Source of the DNA: Gambelia wislizenii
Lineage: Eukaryota; Chordata; Lepidosauria; Squamata; Crotaphytidae
Length of the DNA: 64,000 nucleotides
Direction: 5' to 3'
Assembly (NCBI GenBank): GCA_030847615.1
Contig: JAUMIR010000005.1
Location: forward strand, 79,394,492-79,458,491
The position numbers and the translations under genes were made by a program. Positions 1,046-47,288 of this stretch are shown here, in pieces. Position 1 is the stretch's first letter; the number at the start of each line of letters is the position of its first letter. The notes beneath the pieces were generated by a model. It did not search any database. It saw only the letters and a list, made by a program, of their open reading frames with translations, and was not told the origin of the DNA.

Positions 1046-1687
1046 GGAGATTATCAGACAGGAACAAAAAAGTGTTCCTGTCCCACAATCTCCACTCCCG
1101 CCCCTGTCCCTGTCATGCCGCAATCACCCTCCCCGCCACGCTTACCTCCTCTCCTGTTGTTCCAACAGCCCAGGAGTGAATGGAGCTCTAATGGAGCTCC
1201 CTTCACTTCCTGGGTCCTCTCCTGTTGTTCCAGCAGCCCAGGAGTGAACGGAGCTCTAATGGAGCTCCATTCACTTCCTGGATCGAAATCCCACGGATTC
1301 TCGTGAGAAGACGTGAGCACGGGAAATTCAAAAATAAAAATAAAAAGAACACAAAAAATGACAGCAAGAAGTAACCCGGGAAGGGTAATAAAAAGTGTGT
1401 CACTTACTTGGATGTTCCGATCTCACCCGGAAGTATTCTGGCAGGGACCTCCCATTGATGCCAGGATCTCACCAACATAACGGGGCACCTTTTTACTCAG
1501 GAATATCCATGACAGAAATGGAATGGGGATCTATTGACAGTTTATCCCATCAATAAAAAACAGTGCCGGTGGAACGGCAGCAGAACAGGTGCATTATGAG
1601 GGGGTAACAACGTCATCTGGTAAGGGAGCCCTTTTGCGATCTCCTGGCGTTCATGTAACATCACTTTTAACACATCTGATAATCTCC
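1046..1687. mobile_element. Harbinger-like MITE (family H)
   Basis: Terminal inverted repeats GGAGATTATCAGA and TCTGATAATCTCC bound a 642-bp non-coding element. The trinucleotide ATA lies on both sides, fitting a 3-bp target duplication (PIF/Harbinger type). The interior holds a self-complementary segment (GGAGTGAATGGAGCTC and GAGCTCCATTCACTTCC) that is present twice in tandem here (1148-1215, 1216-1283). No transposase is encoded, so it must be mobilised in trans. Confidence 0.82.
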
Positions 1688-7210: not shown

Positions 7211-8247
7211 GCTTTTCTTCGCAAACGAAGATTCAGGAAGGACTCATCCCACATTTTCTGCAAGCGCACTGATGACTAAAAAGGCCAATCCGAGATAAAC
7301 AAGTCCGGTTGCAGAAAGCACAGCAGAAGGTCTCCTTGAGTGATGTTCCCGGGTTCTGATTCTTTCTGCATTGTCGTTTCTCTTCAAGACTTGTTTGGCG
7401 TGAGTTCTCAAATAAAGCTGCAGCATTGTGGATAGCACGTCTCCATGCCTCCCGATGTGAGGCCAGGGCGGACCATTGTTGGTGATCAATTTGGCCGAGC
7501 TTGAGATGTTGTTTCAGGGAGTCTTTGTATCGCTTTTTTGGAGCGTCTCTCTTACGCTGACCCGTGGTGAGTTCACTGTAGAGTAGTATTTTTGGGAGGC
7601 AATGGTCCTCCATCCTAGAAACATGCCCTGTCCAGCGCAGCTGTGTTCTCAATATCATGGCTTCAATGCTAGTGATCCCTGCTTGGTCAAAGACAGCAAC
7701 ATTCGTCACATAGTCAGTCCAGTGTATATTTAGGATTGTGCGTATACAATGCTGATGAAAGTGTTCAAGGTGTCGTAAGTGATGGCGATAGGTGACCCAT
7801 GTTTCAGACCCTTAAAGGAGAATAGACAGTACAATGGCTCTATACACACTGATTTTTGTGCTTCGCCTCAGGTGTTTATTATTCCATACTCTTTTGTAAA
7901 GTCTTCCAAATGTGCTATATGACTTTGCTAATCTGTAATCGATCTCTTTGTCAATCTTGACATCTGAGGAGATGATGTTTCCCAGGTAGGTGAACTGCTG
8001 AACGGACTTGAGCACAGATTTGCCGACGGCAATATGGGGATGATGGCATTCGTCCTGTGGTGTAGGCTGGTAAAGAACTTCCATTTTCTTCAGGTTGACT
8101 TCCAGCCCATACAGCTCTGCAGCTGTTGCAAAGCAGGATGTTAGGTGCTGCAGAGTTGCTTCTGTGTGGGCAACAAGGGCAGCATCATCAGGGAAGAGCA
8201 GCTCACGAACTAGATAGTTTAGAATCTTAGTGCGAGCCCTCAGACGT
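7190..8247 (-). mobile_element. 5'-truncated LINE, minus strand, same family as 46112-47320
   Basis: Closely matches the 46-kb copy over its whole length. Its 3' end (low coordinates) runs into (TGTC)n and (TC)n simple sequence at about 7182-7210, the likely element tail. It is truncated on the 5' side near 8247, inside reverse transcriptase, slightly downstream of the 46-kb truncation point. Confidence 0.9.
7233..8247 (-). pseudogene. LINE reverse transcriptase, C-terminal part, one nonsense codon
   Basis: Frame order on the minus strand is reverse transcriptase core, C-terminal domain and terminal finger, ending Met-Ser-Pro-Ser-stop at 7233. One in-frame stop at 7812-7814 (TAT to TAA judged against the 46-kb copy) interrupts it. 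Upstream of the stop the catalytic box reads FPDD where the 46-kb copy has FADD, so this copy would be inactive even without the stop. The cysteine-histidine finger is retained. This is a dead truncated copy. Confidence 0.88.
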
Positions 8248-8571
8248 GATTCCTGACTAAACCCCCCACCCACACTACCTTTCCCAACCACTTTTAATCA
8301 AACTGGAAGCTTAATGAAACCAGAAATTAGATGTTTGACATGTAAGGGTAATGGGACTGGAAAATGAGGTGTGTGCTACCAATAAACCCTCCCTGGATCC
8401 TCCCTTAAGGGAAGACACAATAGCCTAAATCCAATTATTAGTCCCAATTAGAGTAGACTAATTGAATCAATTCATGAAGGATAAGTCAACACATGTAAAT
8501 ACCATTGATTCAATGGTTTCTACTGTGGTTGGATCTAGCAATTAGATTTCAGTCAATATGCTTAAAAAGTC

Positions 8572-24834: not shown

Positions 24835-25443
24835 AGAGATTTTCAGACACTCTAAATATGGTGTTATCACAACACCAGGAGATTGCTAAAGGGTTAGCAT
24901 TTCAGAGGACATTGTTCCTGTCCTGTTATGCTCCCGTTCCGCTGGCACTTTTTTTTTATTGATGGGCTAAGCTGTCAATGGAGCCCCCGTTCCATTTCTG
25001 TAACAGAATGGCATTTAACTGAAAAGGAGCCCCGTTATGCTGGCACGATGCCAGCGTCAGTGGGAGGTCCCTGCCAGAACACTTCCAGGTGAGATCTGGA
25101 CATCCAGGTAAAGTGACACACATTTTTGTACCCTCTCCAGATTACTTGTTATGTTTTAAGTATGTTTTTGTGCTTGCTGTCACTTTTTTCCTTTTATTTT
25201 GCTTTTAAAATTTGAATTTCCCATGCTCTATCCTCTCATGAGAACGGCTGGGATTTCAAACCAGGAAGTGAATAGAACTCCATTCAAACTCCATTCACTC
25301 TTGGGCAGCAATGAAGATGCTACCAAGGTAGGTCTGAAACTTTTGTTGATTGTGGCATGGCGGTGATGGGAGAGGGGCGGGAAAGGAGATTGCAGGACAG
25401 GAACACTTTTTTTGTTACTGTCTGAAAATCTCCAAAATCAAAA
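24835..25443. mobile_element. Harbinger-like MITE (family H)
   Basis: Ends AGAGATTTTCAGACA and TGTCTGAAAATCTCC; the interior matches the other family H copies in reverse orientation relative to 1046-1687. One internal hairpin is present (near 25255-25310). The target duplication is not clear. Confidence 0.8.
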
Positions 25444-26010: not shown

Positions 26011-26015
26011 TGGGC
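26011..26015. repeat. Target-site duplication, left copy (TGGGC)
   Basis: Five bases directly before the left LTR match those directly after the right LTR. The length fits the Ty1/copia integrase. Its integrity shows that the two LTRs belong to one insertion and have not recombined with another copy. Confidence 0.95.
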
Positions 26016-26688
26016 TGTTAAGGAAAATGCAACATGGGACATACAGTGAAAGAAATAAAATATGTATGTGAAAGTCACAATGACTAAGCAAGAGCAATTA
26101 TGGGGCTACACAGGTGAAACTGCTAATGTAATCTAGAAGCCTGAGAGCCAAGGACAGAGGTACTGAATGCAGATTGGAAACACCTGAGAATCATCAAGTG
26201 TACAAGGTGAATTGTTGAAATACATGGGTTGGTCTTAGGCATGGGTGGAACTATGTGGACCAATCAGAATGGAAGTACACACCCACTGGGTGGAAACTAA
26301 CTAGTGGGTGGTGATAAACAATGGCTATAAAATTGCAATGTTTGCCAATGTATTGGGTGGAGTAGAGGTGGAGTAGTTTGGAGATATTGTGGAGTAATGT
26401 GTAGAGATTGTGGTTTGTTTACCATATAGTATATTTATATAGAAGAATAAAGTAGGTTTTATATAAAACTACTGAGTTGCCTGAGTGAAACCTGGAGACG
26501 TTTTGGAGACACCTGGAGAAGAGTGAGAAGGCTTGGAGAGTTTGTCAGGATCTTCAGCCTATTCTCTGAAACTCTGCTGCTTTGGAGGAAAGCATTAACC
26601 ACTGATCTAAGCTGGTTGGCTCTGCTGCATAACAAGGTGGTGAGTTTGAGCCAGAGGTGAAGAGCTACAACTCCCATCATCCCTGACA
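26016..26688 (+). repeat. 5' LTR of the copia element
   Basis: This 673-bp LTR repeats without a visible difference at 30904-31576 (offset 4888). A TATA-like box (TATAAAAT, 26326-26333) and a polyadenylation signal (AATAAA, 26446-26451) give a plausible U3-R-U5 layout. Transcription would start near 26355, R would run to roughly 26465, and U5 would fill the remainder. A CCAAT motif lies upstream near 26260 (ACCAATCAG). The last 25 or so bases resemble the core of a squamate hAT MITE; see the findings. The U3/R/U5 borders are inferred. Confidence 0.96.
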
Positions 26689-26906
26689 AGGGTTATGGGC
26701 CCAGTTACTAGAGCACCCAGCATCCACAGAAGCTAAAAGTTCCAGAGAGTGGAAGAAAGCTTTGTGGACGACAGATCAGAGCAAGCTGTTTGTGCTGCAC
26801 TGATAAGCCTCGTGAGTAAATCATTTTGTGTTTTGCTTGAGCCCAGACGGGTTGGCTGTGCATACTCAGAAGGACTGTGTCAAATTGAGTCACTGCACAA
26901 ATCAAG
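26689..26906 (+). other. 5' leader between the LTR and Gag-Pol start
   Basis: A 218-bp untranslated leader holding the primer-binding site and presumably the packaging signal. The ATG at 26907 is chosen as the start because the frame opens there, the N-terminus looks like copia Gag (an early Tyr-Ser-Thr-Trp motif), and nothing recognisable lies upstream in frame. Confidence 0.7.
26691..26704 (+). promoter_or_regulatory. Primer-binding site matching an internal part of initiator tRNA-Met
   Basis: GGTTATGGGCCCAG begins two bases after the left LTR. It is the exact reverse complement of CTGGGCCCATAACC, the anticodon stem and loop region of eukaryotic initiator tRNA-Met (CAU anticodon inside). 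A normal site would pair with the tRNA 3' end and carry TGG just after the LTR; that is absent. Drosophila copia is known to use the same internal segment, primed by a tRNA-Met cleaved in the anticodon loop. The match is direct; half-tRNA priming here is inferred by analogy. Confidence 0.9.
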
Positions 26907-29900
26907 ATGGAATTTCTAAAGTTTAGTAAATTGAATAGAAACAACTACTCTACCTGGAAGATTTATGCCCAATCTCTACTAGTAAAGGAAGGTCTGTGGT
27001 CAACAGTTGAAACAGGGCTGGCAGCTGATGCTGATGAAGCCACTAAAGAGAGAGATAGTAAAGCAAAAGCCTGTCTTTATCTCATGCTTGAAGAAGACTT
27101 AATTAATGACGTCAGAGATAAAACGTCTGCCAAGGCTGTGTGGGATACCTTGCAGAGATTACACACTCCTTCAACTGCTTTTGCAAAAATGCTATGGTCT
27201 AAAAGAATATACAGGCAAAAGATGGCTAAAGGGCAATGTGTGATAGAACATTTAAAAATAATGCAAGATTTGTTTGTGCAAGCTGAACTGAGGGGAGTGC
27301 AAATTAGCAAAGAGCAGCAATGCTACATTTTAATAGAATCGCTAGACTCTTCGTGGGACAATATAACGAACAGCCTGCAAAACCTGTCAGAAACTGAGCT
27401 TAATAGAGACTTAATTGTGGCCAGAATACTGGAAGAGAACCAGAGAAGAATGTCTGAGCAGGGTGACTCAGCAAGTTTAAAGACTGTGCCAAAACAACAA
27501 ACAACTCCTGACTGGCGAACGCAGGAGGAAGCAGCCTCTACAAGGGAGCAACGGAGGTGCTTTTATTGTAAGAAGATTGGTCATCTGCAGAGACATTGTA
27601 AACATTTTGCAGCTGAGAGACGCAAGCAAGCAGAGAGCAGATGGCAGCCGCGGCAGTATCAAAAACAGTCCAGACCTCCATTTTTGAGGGACAGTGGTAA
27701 TAAAAAGGGGTTTGCAACCATGATTAAGGAAAAACAAAATGCAAATTCTAAATGGCTAGTTGATTCAGGAGCCACATCTTTGATGTGTAATGATATAAAT
27801 TTAATAAGTAATAGAAAATCAGCTAATGTAAATGCTGTAGTTTTGGCTGACGGGAAAGAGTTAAGTACTGTAAATCAAATGGGTACTGTGTACATTCCAG
27901 GGCTAAAAGAGAATTTTAATGATGTCTTACATGTAAGGGAGTTAGAAAATAATTTGTTATCAGTAAGCAGATTAACAGAAAGAGACTACACAGTCATCTT
28001 TGAAAAGAACATGTGTAAGATAAAACTGAATGGGGAATTGCGTGGCATAGGTTTGAAAAAGGACAAACTTTATTATTTGGAGGACAATATTGATAGCTAC
28101 AGGGTTGAAGAAGCTAATAACATAGAAAATATTCCAATCCACAAAGACTGCATACACGAGCTTCACAGAAAATTCGGCCATGCGAGCTTCAAATGTTTAA
28201 AGAATTTAATCAGTAGGTGTCCAGATTTAAAAGTTACTGAATGCAAAAACCACTTAGATTGTACAGTGTGTCAACAGGTAAAGGTCAGAGCTTTTCCAGT
28301 AGCTAAGAAAACAAAAAGAATTGCTCAAAGACCATTTCAGTATGTACATGCAGATGTTGCCCAAGCTAATTGCTTGTCCTTAGGGGGAAGCAAGTATTTC
28401 CTAGTAATTGTTGATAGGTATACAAGGTTTGCATTTGTGAGAATAATGAAAAACAAATCTGACGCTGGGCAAAGTTTAAAAGCATGGGTAAGAATGGTGG
28501 AAAGACAATTTGATAGCAGAGTAGGCACCATCATTACTGATAGAGGAGGAGAATTTTTAAATAATCAATTGTTTAACTGGTTTCAAAAGGTGGGAATAAG
28601 GCATGAAACTACAAACCCTGCTTGTCCTAGTGAGGATGGGTTAGCAGAGAAGAAAATACAAGATATAAAAAGAATTACTGCTTGTATGATGGCAGATGCA
28701 GGGGTGAAAGATAGTTTTTGGGCAGAAGCAACTTTGACTGCAATACATATCAGTAACAGATTGTATCATTCAGAAATTGAAGACATTCCCTACAGGTTAT
28801 TGTATGGGAGAATGCCAAATTATAAGTACTTAAGGGTTTTTGGACAATTTGCTCATGTTTACACACCTGCTTGTTTCAGGAGGAAAGGAGAACCCAAAAG
28901 CAAAAGGCTTAGGTTTTTGGGGTATTCTGGAAATAGCTACAAGTTTCATTTGGGAGGAAAACAAGTGCAGTATTCTAGGTCTGCAAATTTTGAGAGACAT
29001 GCTGGTTGGGACAAACTGCATGCCAATAAAGAAGTGTTTTTGAGATTAGGGAGTTCAAATGAGCCAGAAGCACAAACTGAACCAACCTCAGGAAACGGAG
29101 GGGTTTCAGTTAAGCAGGAAGCATCACCTAGCAGCAGTGGTAGTTCTTCTGATGATGAGATAGCATCTAGGCCTACTGCTACTCGAATGACTGAAGACAA
29201 GAGATTTAGTCATAGAACTACAACTCCTAGTAGAGAAAGTGAGGATGAAAGAGACAGAACAGCAGATTTTATTCCCAGGCGTAGTCATAGAGTTAGAAAG
29301 CCTCCAGATAGGTTTGTTGTGACAAAGGCAAGAGCTTGTTTAGCAGTAGAAGAGCCTGAAAGTTTTGAAGAATTGGAAAGTTATTCTAGTGAAGAACAGG
29401 AAAGATGGTTTGATGCAATGGATAATGAGTTTGGTTGCCTGGTAAATAAAGATGTTTTTGAAATTGTTGACAGACCCAAAGACAAGAAAGTAATTGGTTG
29501 TAAATGGGTATACAAAAGGAAAGAAATGCCAGATGGAAGTATCAAATATAAAGCTAGGTTAGTGGCTAAGGGTTTTGCACAACAGCAGTATGAGAACTAT
29601 GATAAGACATATTCTCCAACTGCAAAGCCAGAAAGTCTGAGAATGGTTCTAGCTGTAGCAGTAAAAAGGAATTTAGTTGTAGAACATTTTGATTTTGAGA
29701 CAGCTTACTTGAATGCGGTTCTGGATGAAGAAATATTTATGGAACAGCCACAAGGTTTCGAAGAAAATGGTAGTCAAAGAGTATATAAATTAAAGAAAGC
29801 ATTGTATGGTTTAAAACAAAGTGCCAGAGCGTGGAATCTGTGCATCAATGATGAGCTAGTTAAGCTAGGTTACAAGAGGAGCATTGCAGATGCTTGTGTT

Positions 29901-30872
29901 TATACAAAAGGAGACATAGTGTTAGTAATTTATGTAGATGATTTGTGCGTAGCAGCAAAGTCAAAACAGGAAATTGAGTCAGTAAAAAGAGAATTGTCTA
30001 AGAAGTTTGTTTTGAAGGACTTAGGTGTATTGAAGTCTTATTTAGGTATTTGCGTTGAATGGACAGAAGAAGGACATTGTTTATTAAGTCAGAGAAATAA
30101 AATTGAAAGACTGATTGAAAAGTGTGGATTACAGAATGCAAAAATAGTAAGAGCTCCAATGACAACTGGTTTTGTGTCTGAGGAAACAACTAGAGCGTTT
30201 GAGGACAAGAATCTCTTCAGAAGTATAATAGGATCTTTACAATTCATATCTTGCCACACCAGACCAGACATTTCTTATGCTGTAAATGTATTGTCTAGAA
30301 GGGTTAATGATCCAAAAATTGAAGACTGGACAGCGGTAAAACATTTATTGAGATATTTAAAAGGAACCGTAGATAGGAAATTGATAATAAGAAACAATAG
30401 TTCAGATCTAGATTGTTATGTAGACAGTTCATTTGCATCAGAATTAGGAGACAAGAAGTCAGTTACAGGAATGATAATTAAATATAGTGAAAGTCCAATA
30501 GTTTGGAGAAGTAGAAAACAAACTAATGTAGCGTTAAGCACAACAGAAGCAGAATTTGCTGCTTTGAATGAGATAGTAAATGAGGTACAGTGGATTAAGC
30601 AATTGTTAAATGATTTAAATGAAAGTTACAAGATACCAGTGGAAATTCTGGAAGATTCACAGTCATGCATAGCGATGGCTGAAACTGAAAGTTTGAAGAA
30701 CAGAACAAAATATGTTGGTGTAAGATATCAAAATGTGCGAGACATGGTTCAGAAGGGTGAAATAGAATTGAGATATATAGAAACACAACACAACATAGCA
30801 GATTTGTTCACAAAAGCATTGACAGCAGAAAAACATGAAAGGCTGACACAAATGGTTGGAATGACATTGTAA
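26907..30872 (+). CDS. Gag-Pol polyprotein of a Ty1/copia retrotransposon
   Basis: A 1321-residue polyprotein that would assemble virus-like particles, copy the element RNA to DNA and integrate it. Gag has the copia N-terminus (NYSTWK near residue 12) and a CCHC zinc knuckle at C218, C221, H226 and C231. The aspartic protease has DSGA at 286-289. Integrase follows with a zinc-binding HHCC set (H420, H425, C452, C455) and a catalytic triad D483, D545, E581; the last two are 35 residues apart (DD35E). Reverse transcriptase has its first aspartate near D929 and the YVDD box at 1009-1012. RNase H has D1173, E1214 and D1250, ending in the copia-like ADLFTKAL. All catalytic residues I can place are present. 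Gag and Pol share one frame with no slippage site seen, so Gag excess would need splicing or proteolysis, as in copia. Length is close to the family norm of about 1400. Confidence 0.97.
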   Translation: MEFLKFSKLNRNNYSTWKIYAQSLLVKEGLWSTVETGLAADADEATKERDSKAKACLYLMLEEDLINDVRDKTSAKAVWDTLQRLHTPSTAFAKMLWSKRIYRQKMAKGQCVIEHLKIMQDLFVQAELRGVQISKEQQCYILIESLDSSWDNITNSLQNLSETELNRDLIVARILEENQRRMSEQGDSASLKTVPKQQTTPDWRTQEEAASTREQRRCFYCKKIGHLQRHCKHFAAERRKQAESRWQPRQYQKQSRPPFLRDSGNKKGFATMIKEKQNANSKWLVDSGATSLMCNDINLISNRKSANVNAVVLADGKELSTVNQMGTVYIPGLKENFNDVLHVRELENNLLSVSRLTERDYTVIFEKNMCKIKLNGELRGIGLKKDKLYYLEDNIDSYRVEEANNIENIPIHKDCIHELHRKFGHASFKCLKNLISRCPDLKVTECKNHLDCTVCQQVKVRAFPVAKKTKRIAQRPFQYVHADVAQANCLSLGGSKYFLVIVDRYTRFAFVRIMKNKSDAGQSLKAWVRMVERQFDSRVGTIITDRGGEFLNNQLFNWFQKVGIRHETTNPACPSEDGLAEKKIQDIKRITACMMADAGVKDSFWAEATLTAIHISNRLYHSEIEDIPYRLLYGRMPNYKYLRVFGQFAHVYTPACFRRKGEPKSKRLRFLGYSGNSYKFHLGGKQVQYSRSANFERHAGWDKLHANKEVFLRLGSSNEPEAQTEPTSGNGGVSVKQEASPSSSGSSSDDEIASRPTATRMTEDKRFSHRTTTPSRESEDERDRTADFIPRRSHRVRKPPDRFVVTKARACLAVEEPESFEELESYSSEEQERWFDAMDNEFGCLVNKDVFEIVDRPKDKKVIGCKWVYKRKEMPDGSIKYKARLVAKGFAQQQYENYDKTYSPTAKPESLRMVLAVAVKRNLVVEHFDFETAYLNAVLDEEIFMEQPQGFEENGSQRVYKLKKALYGLKQSARAWNLCINDELVKLGYKRSIADACVYTKGDIVLVIYVDDLCVAAKSKQEIESVKRELSKKFVLKDLGVLKSYLGICVEWTEEGHCLLSQRNKIERLIEKCGLQNAKIVRAPMTTGFVSEETTRAFEDKNLFRSIIGSLQFISCHTRPDISYAVNVLSRRVNDPKIEDWTAVKHLLRYLKGTVDRKLIIRNNSSDLDCYVDSSFASELGDKKSVTGMIIKYSESPIVWRSRKQTNVALSTTEAEFAALNEIVNEVQWIKQLLNDLNESYKIPVEILEDSQSCIAMAETESLKNRTKYVGVRYQNVRDMVQKGEIELRYIETQHNIADLFTKALTAEKHERLTQMVGMTL

Positions 30873-30894
30873 GACACATACAATATTTTATTTC

Positions 30895-30902
30895 GGAGGG
30901 GA
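30895..30902 (+). promoter_or_regulatory. Polypurine tract (plus-strand primer)
   Basis: GGAGGGGA ends one base before the right LTR and lies 22 bp after the Gag-Pol stop. This is where RNase H would leave the RNA primer for plus-strand synthesis. Confidence 0.85.
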
Positions 30903-30903
30903 T

Positions 30904-31576
30904 TGTTAAGGAAAATGCAACATGGGACATACAGTGAAAGAAATAAAATATGTATGTGAAAGTCACAATGACTAAGCAAGAGCAATTATGGGGCTACACA
31001 GGTGAAACTGCTAATGTAATCTAGAAGCCTGAGAGCCAAGGACAGAGGTACTGAATGCAGATTGGAAACACCTGAGAATCATCAAGTGTACAAGGTGAAT
31101 TGTTGAAATACATGGGTTGGTCTTAGGCATGGGTGGAACTATGTGGACCAATCAGAATGGAAGTACACACCCACTGGGTGGAAACTAACTAGTGGGTGGT
31201 GATAAACAATGGCTATAAAATTGCAATGTTTGCCAATGTATTGGGTGGAGTAGAGGTGGAGTAGTTTGGAGATATTGTGGAGTAATGTGTAGAGATTGTG
31301 GTTTGTTTACCATATAGTATATTTATATAGAAGAATAAAGTAGGTTTTATATAAAACTACTGAGTTGCCTGAGTGAAACCTGGAGACGTTTTGGAGACAC
31401 CTGGAGAAGAGTGAGAAGGCTTGGAGAGTTTGTCAGGATCTTCAGCCTATTCTCTGAAACTCTGCTGCTTTGGAGGAAAGCATTAACCACTGATCTAAGC
31501 TGGTTGGCTCTGCTGCATAACAAGGTGGTGAGTTTGAGCCAGAGGTGAAGAGCTACAACTCCCATCATCCCTGACA
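30904..31576 (+). repeat. 3' LTR of the copia element
   Basis: Direct repeat of the left LTR. It begins directly after the polypurine tract and is followed by the duplicated target bases TGGGC. The same TATA-like box falls at 31214-31221 and the AATAAA signal at 31334-31339, which would end the genomic transcript. No difference from the left LTR was found by eye, so the insertion has had little time to accumulate mutations. Confidence 0.96.
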
Positions 31577-31581
31577 TGGGC
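31577..31581. repeat. Target-site duplication, right copy (TGGGC)
   Basis: Exact match to 26011-26015. Joining the flanks across one copy gives the empty site, AATGGTTGGGCAGTGTG. Confidence 0.95.
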
Positions 31582-31916: not shown

Positions 31917-32539
31917 GGAGATTATCAGACACCCTTAATATGCATTATAGGAATGCCAGGAGATCGCCCAAGGGCATCCCTTTCAGACTACATTGTCCTT
32001 GTCCTGTTATGCTCCTGTGCTGGCCCTGTTTTGCCCTCACTTCTTCCTATTCACAGCTTAAGCCATGAATAAATCACCCGTTCCGTTTCTGTCATGGAAT
32101 GACCGGTGAGTGAAAAGGTGCCCTGTTCCTGTAGCATGATGCCAGCTGTAGTGGGAGGTCGGTTCCAGAACACTTCCAGGTGCGATCGGGACATCCAGAT
32201 AAGTGACACCCTTTTTTTTTGTACCCTCCCTGAGTTACTTTGTAATTTTTTTGAGTCTGCTTTTGTGCTTGCTGTCACTTTTGGATATATTTTTGGCTTT
32301 TATTTTTTGAATTTCCCACACGCTTGTTCTCTTGCGAGAATGGCCTGGGATTTCAGCCAAGAACTGAATGCAGCTCAGTGTGAGCTGCATTCACTCCATG
32401 GCTGCCGAGGGGAGCAGACGGACACATGATTAAGGTAAGTGCAAAACAGTTCATTATAGTACTGGGACGGGGTTGGGGTGTAGCAGGAGAGGAGATAGCG
32501 AGATGGGGACACTATTTTTGTCCCCATCCAATAATCTCC
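31917..32539. mobile_element. Harbinger-like MITE (family H)
   Basis: Ends GGAGATTATCAGACA and CCAATAATCTCC, flanked on both sides by TTA, the canonical TWA target of PIF/Harbinger elements. It lies 336 bp downstream of the copia element. Interior as in other copies, with the hairpin near 32365-32395 altered (TGCAGCTC repeats). Confidence 0.84.
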
Positions 32540-45710: not shown

Positions 45711-46059
45711 TGTTTCACACAGATTACAACTCAAGTTTTTGCCTCCCTAGTAGGCTGGTCAATTACTAATTAAATTCAATTGTATTTTAAATCACATGTA
45801 CTCATTGTATGGGATCTTCCAGTGCTCATTAGACCGGTGCTATTTAAAGCAGTAGTCCATTAACTGGTGCTGGTCCATCAGCCATCAGTGCCAGTCTGTA
45901 GTGAGTGCCTATGAAACTATGTTAATATGACAATAATATGGTACAAACATGGCAGTGGTCTCTGGCACATGGACAGAAAACTACTTACTGGATAATTTGA
46001 GAAGCTCCGGGCTAGAGGATTCCTTTGAGCAAAAGTATGTGGCATATTGGTAGGAGTCT

Positions 46060-46111
46060 GGTTGGTTTTGAAACAAGAAGTCTTTCTTAGTGGCTTTTCC
46101 CAGGCTCTGGA
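46060..46111. repeat. 52-bp target-site duplication, left copy
   Basis: Begins GGTTGGTTTTGAAACAAGAA and ends CAGGCTCTGGA. It is identical by eye to 47321-47372. Such a length is far above the usual 5-20 bp for LINE insertions. Confidence 0.92.
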
Positions 46112-47288
46112 GCCCTTTCTAATAACTAATGGAGTGAAGCAAGGTTGTGTTCTTGCACCAACTTTATTTACAATCTTCTTTAGCACGATGCTCCAAAGGG
46201 CTATGGCAGAGCTTGAAGAAGACGACGGCATCTATATACGCTACCGTACTGATGGTAGCTTGTTTAACTTAAGCCGTCTGAGGGCTCACACTAAGACTCT
46301 AAACTATCTAGTCCGTGAGCTGCTCTTCGCCGATGATGCTGCCCTTGTTGCCCACACAGAAGCATCTCTGCAGCGCCTAACGTCCTGCTTTGCAACAGCT
46401 GCAGAGCTGTTTGGGCTAGAAGTCAACCTGAAGAAAACAGAAGTTCTTTACCAGCCTGCACCACAGGACGAACACCACCATCCCCACATTGCCGTTGGCA
46501 AATCTGTGCTCAAGTCCGTTCAGCAGTTCACCTACCTGGGGAGCATCATCTCCTCAGATGCCAAGATTGACAAAGAGATCGATCACAGATTAGCAAAGGC
46601 ATATAGTGCATTTGGAAGACTTCACAAAAGAGTCTGGAGCAATAAACACCTGAGGCAAAGCACAAAAATCAGTGTGTATAGAGCCATCGTACTGTCTATC
46701 CTCCTTTATGGATCTGAAACATGGGTCACCTATCGCCACCACCTACGACTCCTCGAGCGCTTTCATCAGCGCTGTCTACGCACAATCCTAAATATACACT
46801 GGACTGACTATGTGACGAATGTTGCTGTCCTTGAGCAAGCAGGGATCACCAGCATATAGGCCATGATATTGAGAACACAGCTGCGCTGGGCAGGGCATGT
46901 TTCTAGGATGGAGGACCATCGCCTCCCAAAAATACTACTCTACGGTGAACTCGCCACGGGTCAGCGTAAGAGGGGCGCTCCAAAAAAGCGATACAAAGAC
47001 TCCCTGAAACAACATCTCAGGCTTGGCCAAATTGATCACCAACAGTGGTCCGCCCTGGCCTCACATCGGGAGGCATGGAGACGCACTATCCACAATGCTG
47101 CAGCCTTATTTGAGAACTCACGATGAACAAGTCTTGAAGAGAAACGACAACGCAGAAAAAATCACAACCCAAAAACATCACCCAGGGAGACCTTCTGCTG
47201 TGCTTTTTGCAACCGGACTTGTTTATCTCGGATTGGCCTTTTTAGTCATCAGCGCGCTTGCAGAAAGCGCGGGATGAGTCCTTCCTGA
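46112..47288 (+). pseudogene. LINE reverse transcriptase, C-terminal part, two nonsense codons
   Basis: One reading frame can be followed throughout. It opens with the reverse transcriptase motif GVKQGC, then the catalytic FADD box (46326-46337), then a thumb-like region and a C-terminal domain with QLRWAGHVSRM. It ends in a cysteine-histidine finger (CAFC, then HQRAC; spacing C-x2-C-x12-H-x3-C) and a stop at 47286. Two in-frame stops break it, at 46857-46859 and 47124-47126; the minus-strand copy has a sense codon at each place, so these are point mutations in this copy. The N-terminal half, with the endonuclease, is missing by 5' truncation. The first 22 codons of the apparent frame from 46047 are flanking DNA. 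The finger presumably binds the element RNA or target DNA. Confidence 0.9.

What the first reader, a model, noticed from the sequence alone, without database searches (positions are those of the whole stretch)
26016..31576. Young, apparently intact Ty1/copia element in a vertebrate-type genome
Both 673-bp LTRs read identically, the 5-bp duplication is perfect and all 1321 Gag-Pol codons are open with every catalytic residue in place. Ty1/copia elements are scarce in amniotes and mostly degraded, so a full-length copy with no visible LTR divergence suggests recent or ongoing activity in this lineage.
Basis: partly seen in the sequence, partly recalled or inferred. Interest (0 to 1): 0.9.

Follow-up and report, generated by a model that had tools for sequence, protein, structure and literature searches.

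The report
Young, recombining lizard copia retrotransposon family
This is an intact, very recently inserted jumping gene of the Ty1/copia type in a lizard genome; far from being a rare survivor, it belongs to a large young family whose copies appear to have swapped sequence with each other very often, a pattern shown directly for a plant relative.

Summary
Window 26016-31576 is a complete Ty1/copia element: identical 673-bp LTRs, TGGGC duplication, one 1321-codon Gag-Pol, copia-type primer site, polypurine tract. RAG1 points to a pleurodont iguanian lizard, an amniote.

The framing as a rare survivor does not hold. The same assembly has at least 162 distinct full-length open-frame copies. Of 14 copies with both LTRs read, 10 pairs are identical and 4 differ by 1-2 bases; 13 have a perfect 5-bp duplication. 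Coding sequence is under purifying selection across copies (pN/pS 0.13 in a stretch not used to rank them). Recent Copia activity is already reported in corn snake and anole; tuatara has an abundant one.

Less expected: the copies are close to linkage equilibrium. r2 falls from 0.24 under 20 bp to 0.06 at 50-150 bp (null 0.036), four-gamete pairs are 41% against 10-18% in clonal simulations, and LTR and RT distances are uncorrelated. Likeliest mechanism: template switching between co-packaged RNAs, as in Arabidopsis Onsen. A new member of a known kind.

The parts
26011..26015 (.). 5' target-site duplication TGGGC
26016..26688 (+). 5' LTR, 673 bp, TG...CA
26326..26332 (+). TATAAAA in the LTR, putative TATA box
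   Evidence: LTR position 311; a second TATAAAA at 447; function inferred
26446..26451 (+). AATAAA in the LTR, putative poly(A) signal
   Evidence: LTR position 431; a second AATAAA at 39; function inferred
26689..26704 (+). primer-binding site AGGGTTATGGGCCCAG, complementary to the anticodon arm of initiator tRNA-Met (half-tRNA priming; tRNA sequence recalled)
   Evidence: this 16-mer follows the 5' LTR in 14 of 14 copies; anticodon priming in Copia: PMC10886601 passages
26689..26906 (+). untranslated leader, 218 bp
26907..30872 (+). Gag-Pol ORF, 1321 codons plus stop
26970..27458 (+). copia-type gag (PF14223)
   Evidence: residues 22-184
27558..27599 (+). CCHC zinc knuckle CFYCKKIGHLQRHC
   Evidence: residues 218-231
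27762..27773 (+). protease motif DSGA
   Evidence: residues 286-289
28326..28622 (+). integrase core (PF00665)
   Evidence: residues 474-572; acidic motifs at 481 and 544, and the E at 581 just past the Pfam match
29451..30164 (+). reverse transcriptase RVT_2 (PF07727), YVDD at residue 1009
30417..30665 (+). RNase H motifs YVDS, TEAE, EDSQS
   Evidence: motifs recalled, no Pfam match
30895..30903 (+). polypurine tract GGAGGGGAT next to the 3' LTR
30904..31576 (+). 3' LTR, identical to the 5' LTR
31577..31581 (.). 3' target-site duplication TGGGC

Best explanation
A complete, autonomous-looking Ty1/copia LTR retrotransposon of a large, recently amplifying family in what is most likely a pleurodont iguanian lizard. 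Inferred cycle: Pol II transcription from the LTR; translation of a single Gag-Pol; packaging of RNA in virus-like particles; reverse transcription primed by initiator tRNA-Met at the anticodon-arm site; integration with a 5-bp duplication. Shown by sequence: anatomy, identical LTRs, many open-frame copies, purifying selection across copies, mosaic copies near linkage equilibrium. Inferred: that the shuffling comes from template switching between co-packaged RNAs of different loci.
For: Anatomy. Family size: 91 of 150 scored RVT_2 matches (frames of 1326-1327 codons) and 80 of 85 scored RT-RH matches (1324-1342 codons) have a full frame and no stop in the match; 162 distinct places, 9 shared. 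Youth: LTR pair differences 0 in 10, 1 in 2 and 2 in 2 of 14 copies. Selection: pN/pS 0.134 over 27864-29363, 0.048 over RT-RH (28 copies, 378 pairs). Recombination: four-gamete fraction 0.41 (89 sites) against 0.10-0.18 in 20 clonal simulations; for 44 commoner sites r2 is 0.235 under 20 bp, 0.11 at 20-50, 0.06 at 50-400, 0.05 at 400-1000 and about 0.04 beyond, with a linkage-equilibrium null of 0.036; LTR distance correlates at 0.01 and 0.07 with the two halves of RT-RH; L039 shares 2109 identical bp with the window copy between stretches with 17 and 10 differences. Host.
Against: No RNA, polymorphism or sister-species data, so present activity is not shown. The 30 copies used were ranked by RT-RH similarity to the window copy, which lowers pN there. 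Mean r2 at 400 bp or more (0.043) and overall (0.052) stays above the equilibrium null (0.033-0.039), so shuffling is not complete. The simulated alignments had more variable sites (364-438) than the real one (232), so the clonal control is not matched in every respect. Gene conversion among source copies before transcription would leave the same mosaics. One of 14 copies (L043) has no target duplication. Five of 85 RT-RH matches and 59 of 150 RVT_2 matches lacked a full stop-free frame; 28 of the 30 best RVT_2 loci belong to other copia families.
Confidence: 0.92

Rival explanations
1. Assembly artefact: two different LTRs collapsed into one sequence.
For: Identical LTRs are what a collapse would give.
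Against: LTR variants differ between copies (36 LTRs, mean 2.4%) while both LTRs within each of 14 copies agree to 0-2 bases and 13 of 14 have their own 5-bp duplication. Raw reads were not available.
Confidence: 0.02
2. An old element whose LTRs were homogenised by gene conversion.
For: Copies are mosaics, which conversion can make.
Against: Ten of 14 copies with identical LTRs, full frames in 162 places and 13 of 14 perfect duplications would need both conversion and preservation; between-copy LTR differences persist.
Confidence: 0.03
3. The mosaic structure arises by DNA-level gene conversion between integrated copies rather than by template switching.
For: Both make shared tracts; LD falls within tens of bases.
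Against: Conversion after insertion would leave one LTR of a copy changed in a cluster; 14 pairs show 6 substitutions in all. Conversion in source copies before transcription is not excluded. High-frequency recombination, attributed to reverse transcription of two packaged RNAs, is shown for Onsen, a plant LTR retrotransposon (PMC5668417 passages).
Confidence: 0.2
4. Recent horizontal arrival from an invertebrate, followed by a burst.
For: The gag search found no close relative: 11 hits, 21-29% identity.
Against: The element is CpG-poor like the lizard DNA around it (ORF 0.24, LTR 0.04, flanks 0.14-0.17 of expectation; arginine AGR:CGN 86:8), as after long residence in a methylated germline. 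Two other families of the same genome (48% and 66% identical in RT) group with it at 100/99. Synonymous differences between copies average 3.8-4.8%. An older transfer is not excluded, and vertebrate repeats may be poorly represented in the protein set.
Confidence: 0.06

Closest known systems
Corn snake Copia (5832 bp; OCA2 and CLCN2 insertions)
   Same: Ty1/copia in a squamate with very recent copies; the two insertions differ by one base; 85 copies in the wild-type assembly (PMC4657000, PMC11948899, passages)
   Different: Longer (5832 against 5561 bp) and found only in Pantherophis and Pituophis among the snake genomes searched there; sequences not compared here
Copia of Anolis carolinensis (Repbase Copia-6; polymorphic insertions)
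   Same: Pleurodont iguanian host; the table of polymorphic insertions gives 1962 for Copia (column header not seen) (PMC4657000, PMC7561263, passages)
   Different: Sequence relation not tested; Repbase is not held
Tuatara Mtanga-like Ty1/Copia
   Same: Ty1/copia 'especially abundant' in a lepidosaur (PMC7116210, passages)
   Different: Clade identity of the present family not tested
Onsen (Arabidopsis; a copia element, recalled)
   Same: High-frequency intra-family recombination, attributed to reverse transcription of two co-packaged RNAs (PMC5668417, passages)
   Different: Plant element observed over one burst; here inferred from standing copies in a vertebrate
Drosophila copia and yeast Ty5
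   Same: Priming at the tRNA anticodon region (PMC10886601, passages)
   Different: Different hosts; sequences not compared

Membership tests
Ty1/copia (Pseudoviridae) | Integrase upstream of reverse transcriptase, copia-type RT (RVT_2) | tested here: met
   rve 474-572, RVT_2 849-1086 (9.3e-70)
Ty1/copia (Pseudoviridae) | Copia-type gag and CCHC knuckle | tested here: met
   PF14223 6.1e-27; CCHC at 218
Ty1/copia (Pseudoviridae) | LTRs TG...CA and 5-bp target duplication | tested here: met
   window copy and 12 of 13 other copies; L043 has no duplication
Ty1/copia (Pseudoviridae) | tRNA primer site after the 5' LTR, polypurine tract before the 3' LTR | tested here: met
   the tRNA match is recalled, no host tRNA was fetched
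Ty1/copia (Pseudoviridae) | No envelope gene between pol and the 3' LTR | tested here: met
   31 bp between the stop codon and the 3' LTR
Mtanga, Hydra, GalEa or Zeco clade | RT groups with named clade members | not testable with these tools
   no named reference sequences of these clades were held; the tree of 134 rows has 7 host rows, plants, an alga, one moth and unnamed rows
Corn snake or Anolis Copia family | High nucleotide identity to the published element | not testable with these tools
   reference sequences not held
Currently active element | New or polymorphic insertions, transcripts | not testable with these tools
   single assembly only

The most novel reading that the evidence does not exclude
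A vertebrate LTR retrotransposon family that evolves as an almost freely recombining ('sexual') population: copies are put together by template switching so often that variants about 50-150 bp apart are nearly independent, so clonal subfamilies dissolve and selection acts on segments rather than on whole elements.
Probability: 0.6. Interest if true: 0.62.

Novelty: new member of a known kind. Interest (0 to 1): 0.45.

Why it matters
It shows that an iguanian lizard carries a large set of intact, very young Ty1/copia copies, so the copia superfamily has been a live force in this genome, not a relic. The near linkage equilibrium among copies makes an open question testable in a vertebrate: do LTR retrotransposons evolve as clonal master lineages or as recombining populations? 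It also warns that subfamily trees built from whole copies of such a family would mislead.

Tried and rejected
Gag-protease region (residues 1-380) as a probe for close relatives: 11 hits among 5204 candidates; the top hit is 27% identical and the range is 21-29%. RT-RH region: 4733 hits among 7974 scored candidates, of which 120 were listed, mostly plants and unnamed contigs, 28-42% identical. Solved structures, RT-RH: 0 matches. Rfam: none at the gathering threshold; three chance-level hits around the 5' LTR, E 1.4-6.8. The thought that the LTR end is tRNA-derived (as in Helenus) got no support: no tRNA in the window, no tRNA family match. The idea that a nearly CpG-free LTR (0-3 CpG in 36 of 36 LTRs) is a special escape from methylation is weak: of 572 overlapping 673-bp stretches outside the element, 9.8% are as CpG-poor by ratio and 14.5% have at most one CpG. 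PMC6050309 (squamate repeats) had no mention of Ty1 or gypsy in its main text.

A genome-wide count by exact pattern did not complete on any of 12 tries, so the copy number stays a lower bound. The two ranked lists of 91 and 80 full-frame copies share 9; simple recapture arithmetic of my own gives about 740-810, but neither list is a random sample. The first-look candidate numbers (2107, 5934, 8391) are unconfirmed. The 1326-1327-codon copies were taken as this family by frame length; of its first 30 loci only L031 (a shorter frame) and L038 were matched by LTR and RT. LD work used L040-L068 (29 copies) and left out L039, whose RT-RH equals the window copy's; one search also dropped L050 (a missing codon). 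The 30 loci are the best-scoring RVT_2 matches, not a random sample. Of the 29 copies for which a 5' LTR stretch was planned, 12 were fetched.
Full report
Observation. The element is real and complete. Two identical 673-bp LTRs lie at 26016-26688 and 30904-31576, begin TG and end CA, and are flanked by TGGGC. One frame of 1321 codons runs 26907-30872. Pfam shows copia-type gag, the Pol beta-barrel domain, integrase core, SH3-like domain and RVT_2 in the copia order, integrase before RT. Recalled catalytic motifs are present. The 16 bases after the 5' LTR, AGGGTTATGGGCCCAG, complement the anticodon arm of initiator tRNA-Met (tRNA recalled); anticodon priming is known for Drosophila Copia and Ty5 (PMC10886601 passages). 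They are the same in 14 of 14 copies. A polypurine tract precedes the 3' LTR, and the LTR holds TATAAAA and AATAAA.

Host. The window lies on a 270-Mb contig of a 2.466-Gb assembly in 68 contigs. Of the 12 contigs whose length was seen, six are 163-502 Mb and six are 19-45 Mb, which fits the usual iguanian pattern of six large chromosome pairs plus microchromosomes (recalled). The RAG1 protein is 92% identical to Sceloporus undulatus, 91% to Anolis sagrei, 88% to Elgaria and 86-87% to agamids. The host is therefore most likely a pleurodont iguanian lizard outside those two genera. The species was not identified.

Family size. The element is not alone. All 40 scored LTR matches are at least 96% identical to the window LTR, many in pairs about 4.9 kb apart, from 2107 first-look candidates. 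Of 85 scored RT-RH matches (8391 candidates), 80 have a 1324-1342-codon open frame with no stop in the match; of 150 scored RVT_2 matches (5934 candidates), 91 have one of 1326-1327 codons. Together these are 162 distinct places, with 9 shared. This is a lower bound, with family membership of most copies taken from frame length. The host also carries other copia families: among the 30 best RVT_2 loci, 2 belong to this family, 13 to one 65-68% identical in RT, 9 to one at 45-48%, 5 to one at 40-41% and 1 at 42%. The first two of these other families group with the window element at 100/99 support, apart from plants and the one named moth (134 rows, 7 from the host).

Age. Both LTRs were read for the window copy and 13 others. 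Ten of 14 pairs are identical, two differ by one base, two by two bases: 6 substitutions in about 9,340 bp. At a recalled squamate rate near 0.8e-9 per site per year this is a mean of roughly 0.4 million years; for the window copy alone, zero in 673 gives an upper bound near 3 million years (my arithmetic). Thirteen of 14 have a perfect 5-bp duplication; L043 has none and may be a recombinant. LTR variants differ between copies by 2.4% on average (36 LTRs), so neither an assembly collapse nor general homogenisation readily explains the identity within copies.

Selection. Copies differ mainly at silent sites. Over 27864-29363, a stretch not used to rank the copies, pS is 0.038 and pN 0.005 (ratio 0.13); variable sites shared by two or more copies fall 36:4:4 on codon positions 3:1:2 (28 copies). 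Over RT-RH the ratio is 0.048, but copies were ranked by that protein. So these are progeny of lineages that kept a working Gag-Pol while silent differences built up to 3.8-4.8% on average.

Recombination. Over 29 copies, LTR distance correlates at 0.01 (p 0.46) and 0.07 (p 0.27) with the two halves of RT-RH, and the halves at 0.07 with each other (p 0.27; Mantel). Over 3 kb of the internal region, 41% of pairs among 89 informative sites show all four combinations, against 10-18% in 20 simulations on the best clonal tree, although those had more variable sites (364-438 against 232). For the 44 sites whose rarer variant is in at least four copies, r2 is 0.235 below 20 bp, 0.11 at 20-50, 0.06 at 50-400, 0.05 at 400-1000 and about 0.04 beyond; the equilibrium null is 0.036 (0.033-0.039). 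Closeness matters (r2 under 50 bp, permutation p 0.0002), and the overall mean of 0.052 shows that equilibrium is approached, not reached. LTRs alone show the same fall, 0.20 under 20 bp to 0.024 beyond 400 bp (36 LTRs, 17 sites). One copy (L039) shares 2109 bp without a difference with the window copy, between stretches with 17 and 10 differences. Because the two LTRs of each copy still agree, the shuffling seen came mostly before integration. Template switching between two co-packaged RNAs, as argued from direct evidence for Onsen (PMC5668417 passages), is the likeliest cause; conversion among source copies before transcription is not excluded.

CpG. The LTR has one CpG in 673 bp (0.04 of expectation), the ORF 0.24, flanking DNA 0.14-0.17; arginine is coded AGR 86 times and CGN 8 times. 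All 36 LTRs examined have 0-3 CpG. An element this young can hardly have lost its CpGs since insertion, so the replicating lineage lost them, which fits long residence in a methylated germline (inference). The value is low but inside the host's own range.

Known or new. Ty1/copia activity in squamates is documented. A Copia insertion is the likely cause of corn snake amelanism and another is in the Stripe allele of CLCN2, differing by one base, with 85 copies in the assembly (PMC4657000, PMC11948899 passages). A table of polymorphic insertions in green anole gives 1962 for Copia (PMC7561263 passages; column header not seen). Hydrophiine snakes show Copia expansion (PMC8872380 passages), two phrynosomatid lizards carry 0.67% and 0.27% (PMC10699878, PMC12154890 passages), and tuatara has an especially abundant Mtanga-like element (PMC7116210 passages). 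Frog Silurana holds a few copies (PMC4131045 passages). So the element is a new member of a known kind. Of nine answered paper searches, two were aimed at recombination or linkage among copies; of the 20 papers listed by each, I saw none whose title or abstract start reports near linkage equilibrium among copies of a vertebrate LTR family. Papers on plants turned up (Onsen; a population-genetic study of plant lineages, PMC6527191, listing only). Most subscription papers are not in that library, so this is weak evidence of absence.

Noticed in passing
window 46029-47126 (+) and 7233-8297 (-): Two similar fragments of a non-LTR retrotransposon. RVT_1 matches 46029-46856 above the Pfam cut-off and 7812-8294 below it.
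   Followed up: partly
window 25006-25223 and 32097-32318: A diverged repeat (two blocks, 78% and 80% identical) lies on both sides of the element, nearly in register (spacing 7091 and 7095), so the insertion sits between two copies of another repeat.
   Followed up: no
window 26665-26683: The LTR end carries CTACAACTCCCATCATCCC, which resembles a ZNF143 site (recalled).
   Followed up: no
L043 with L070: A copy with identical LTRs but no target duplication, a possible product of recombination between two insertions.
   Followed up: no
L010, L027: Long open frames (1273 and 1066 codons) in the 45-48% and 65-68% related copia families suggest that these too were recently mobile.
   Followed up: no
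window 1147-1281: 68-bp tandem repeat, two copies, 95% matching.
   Followed up: no
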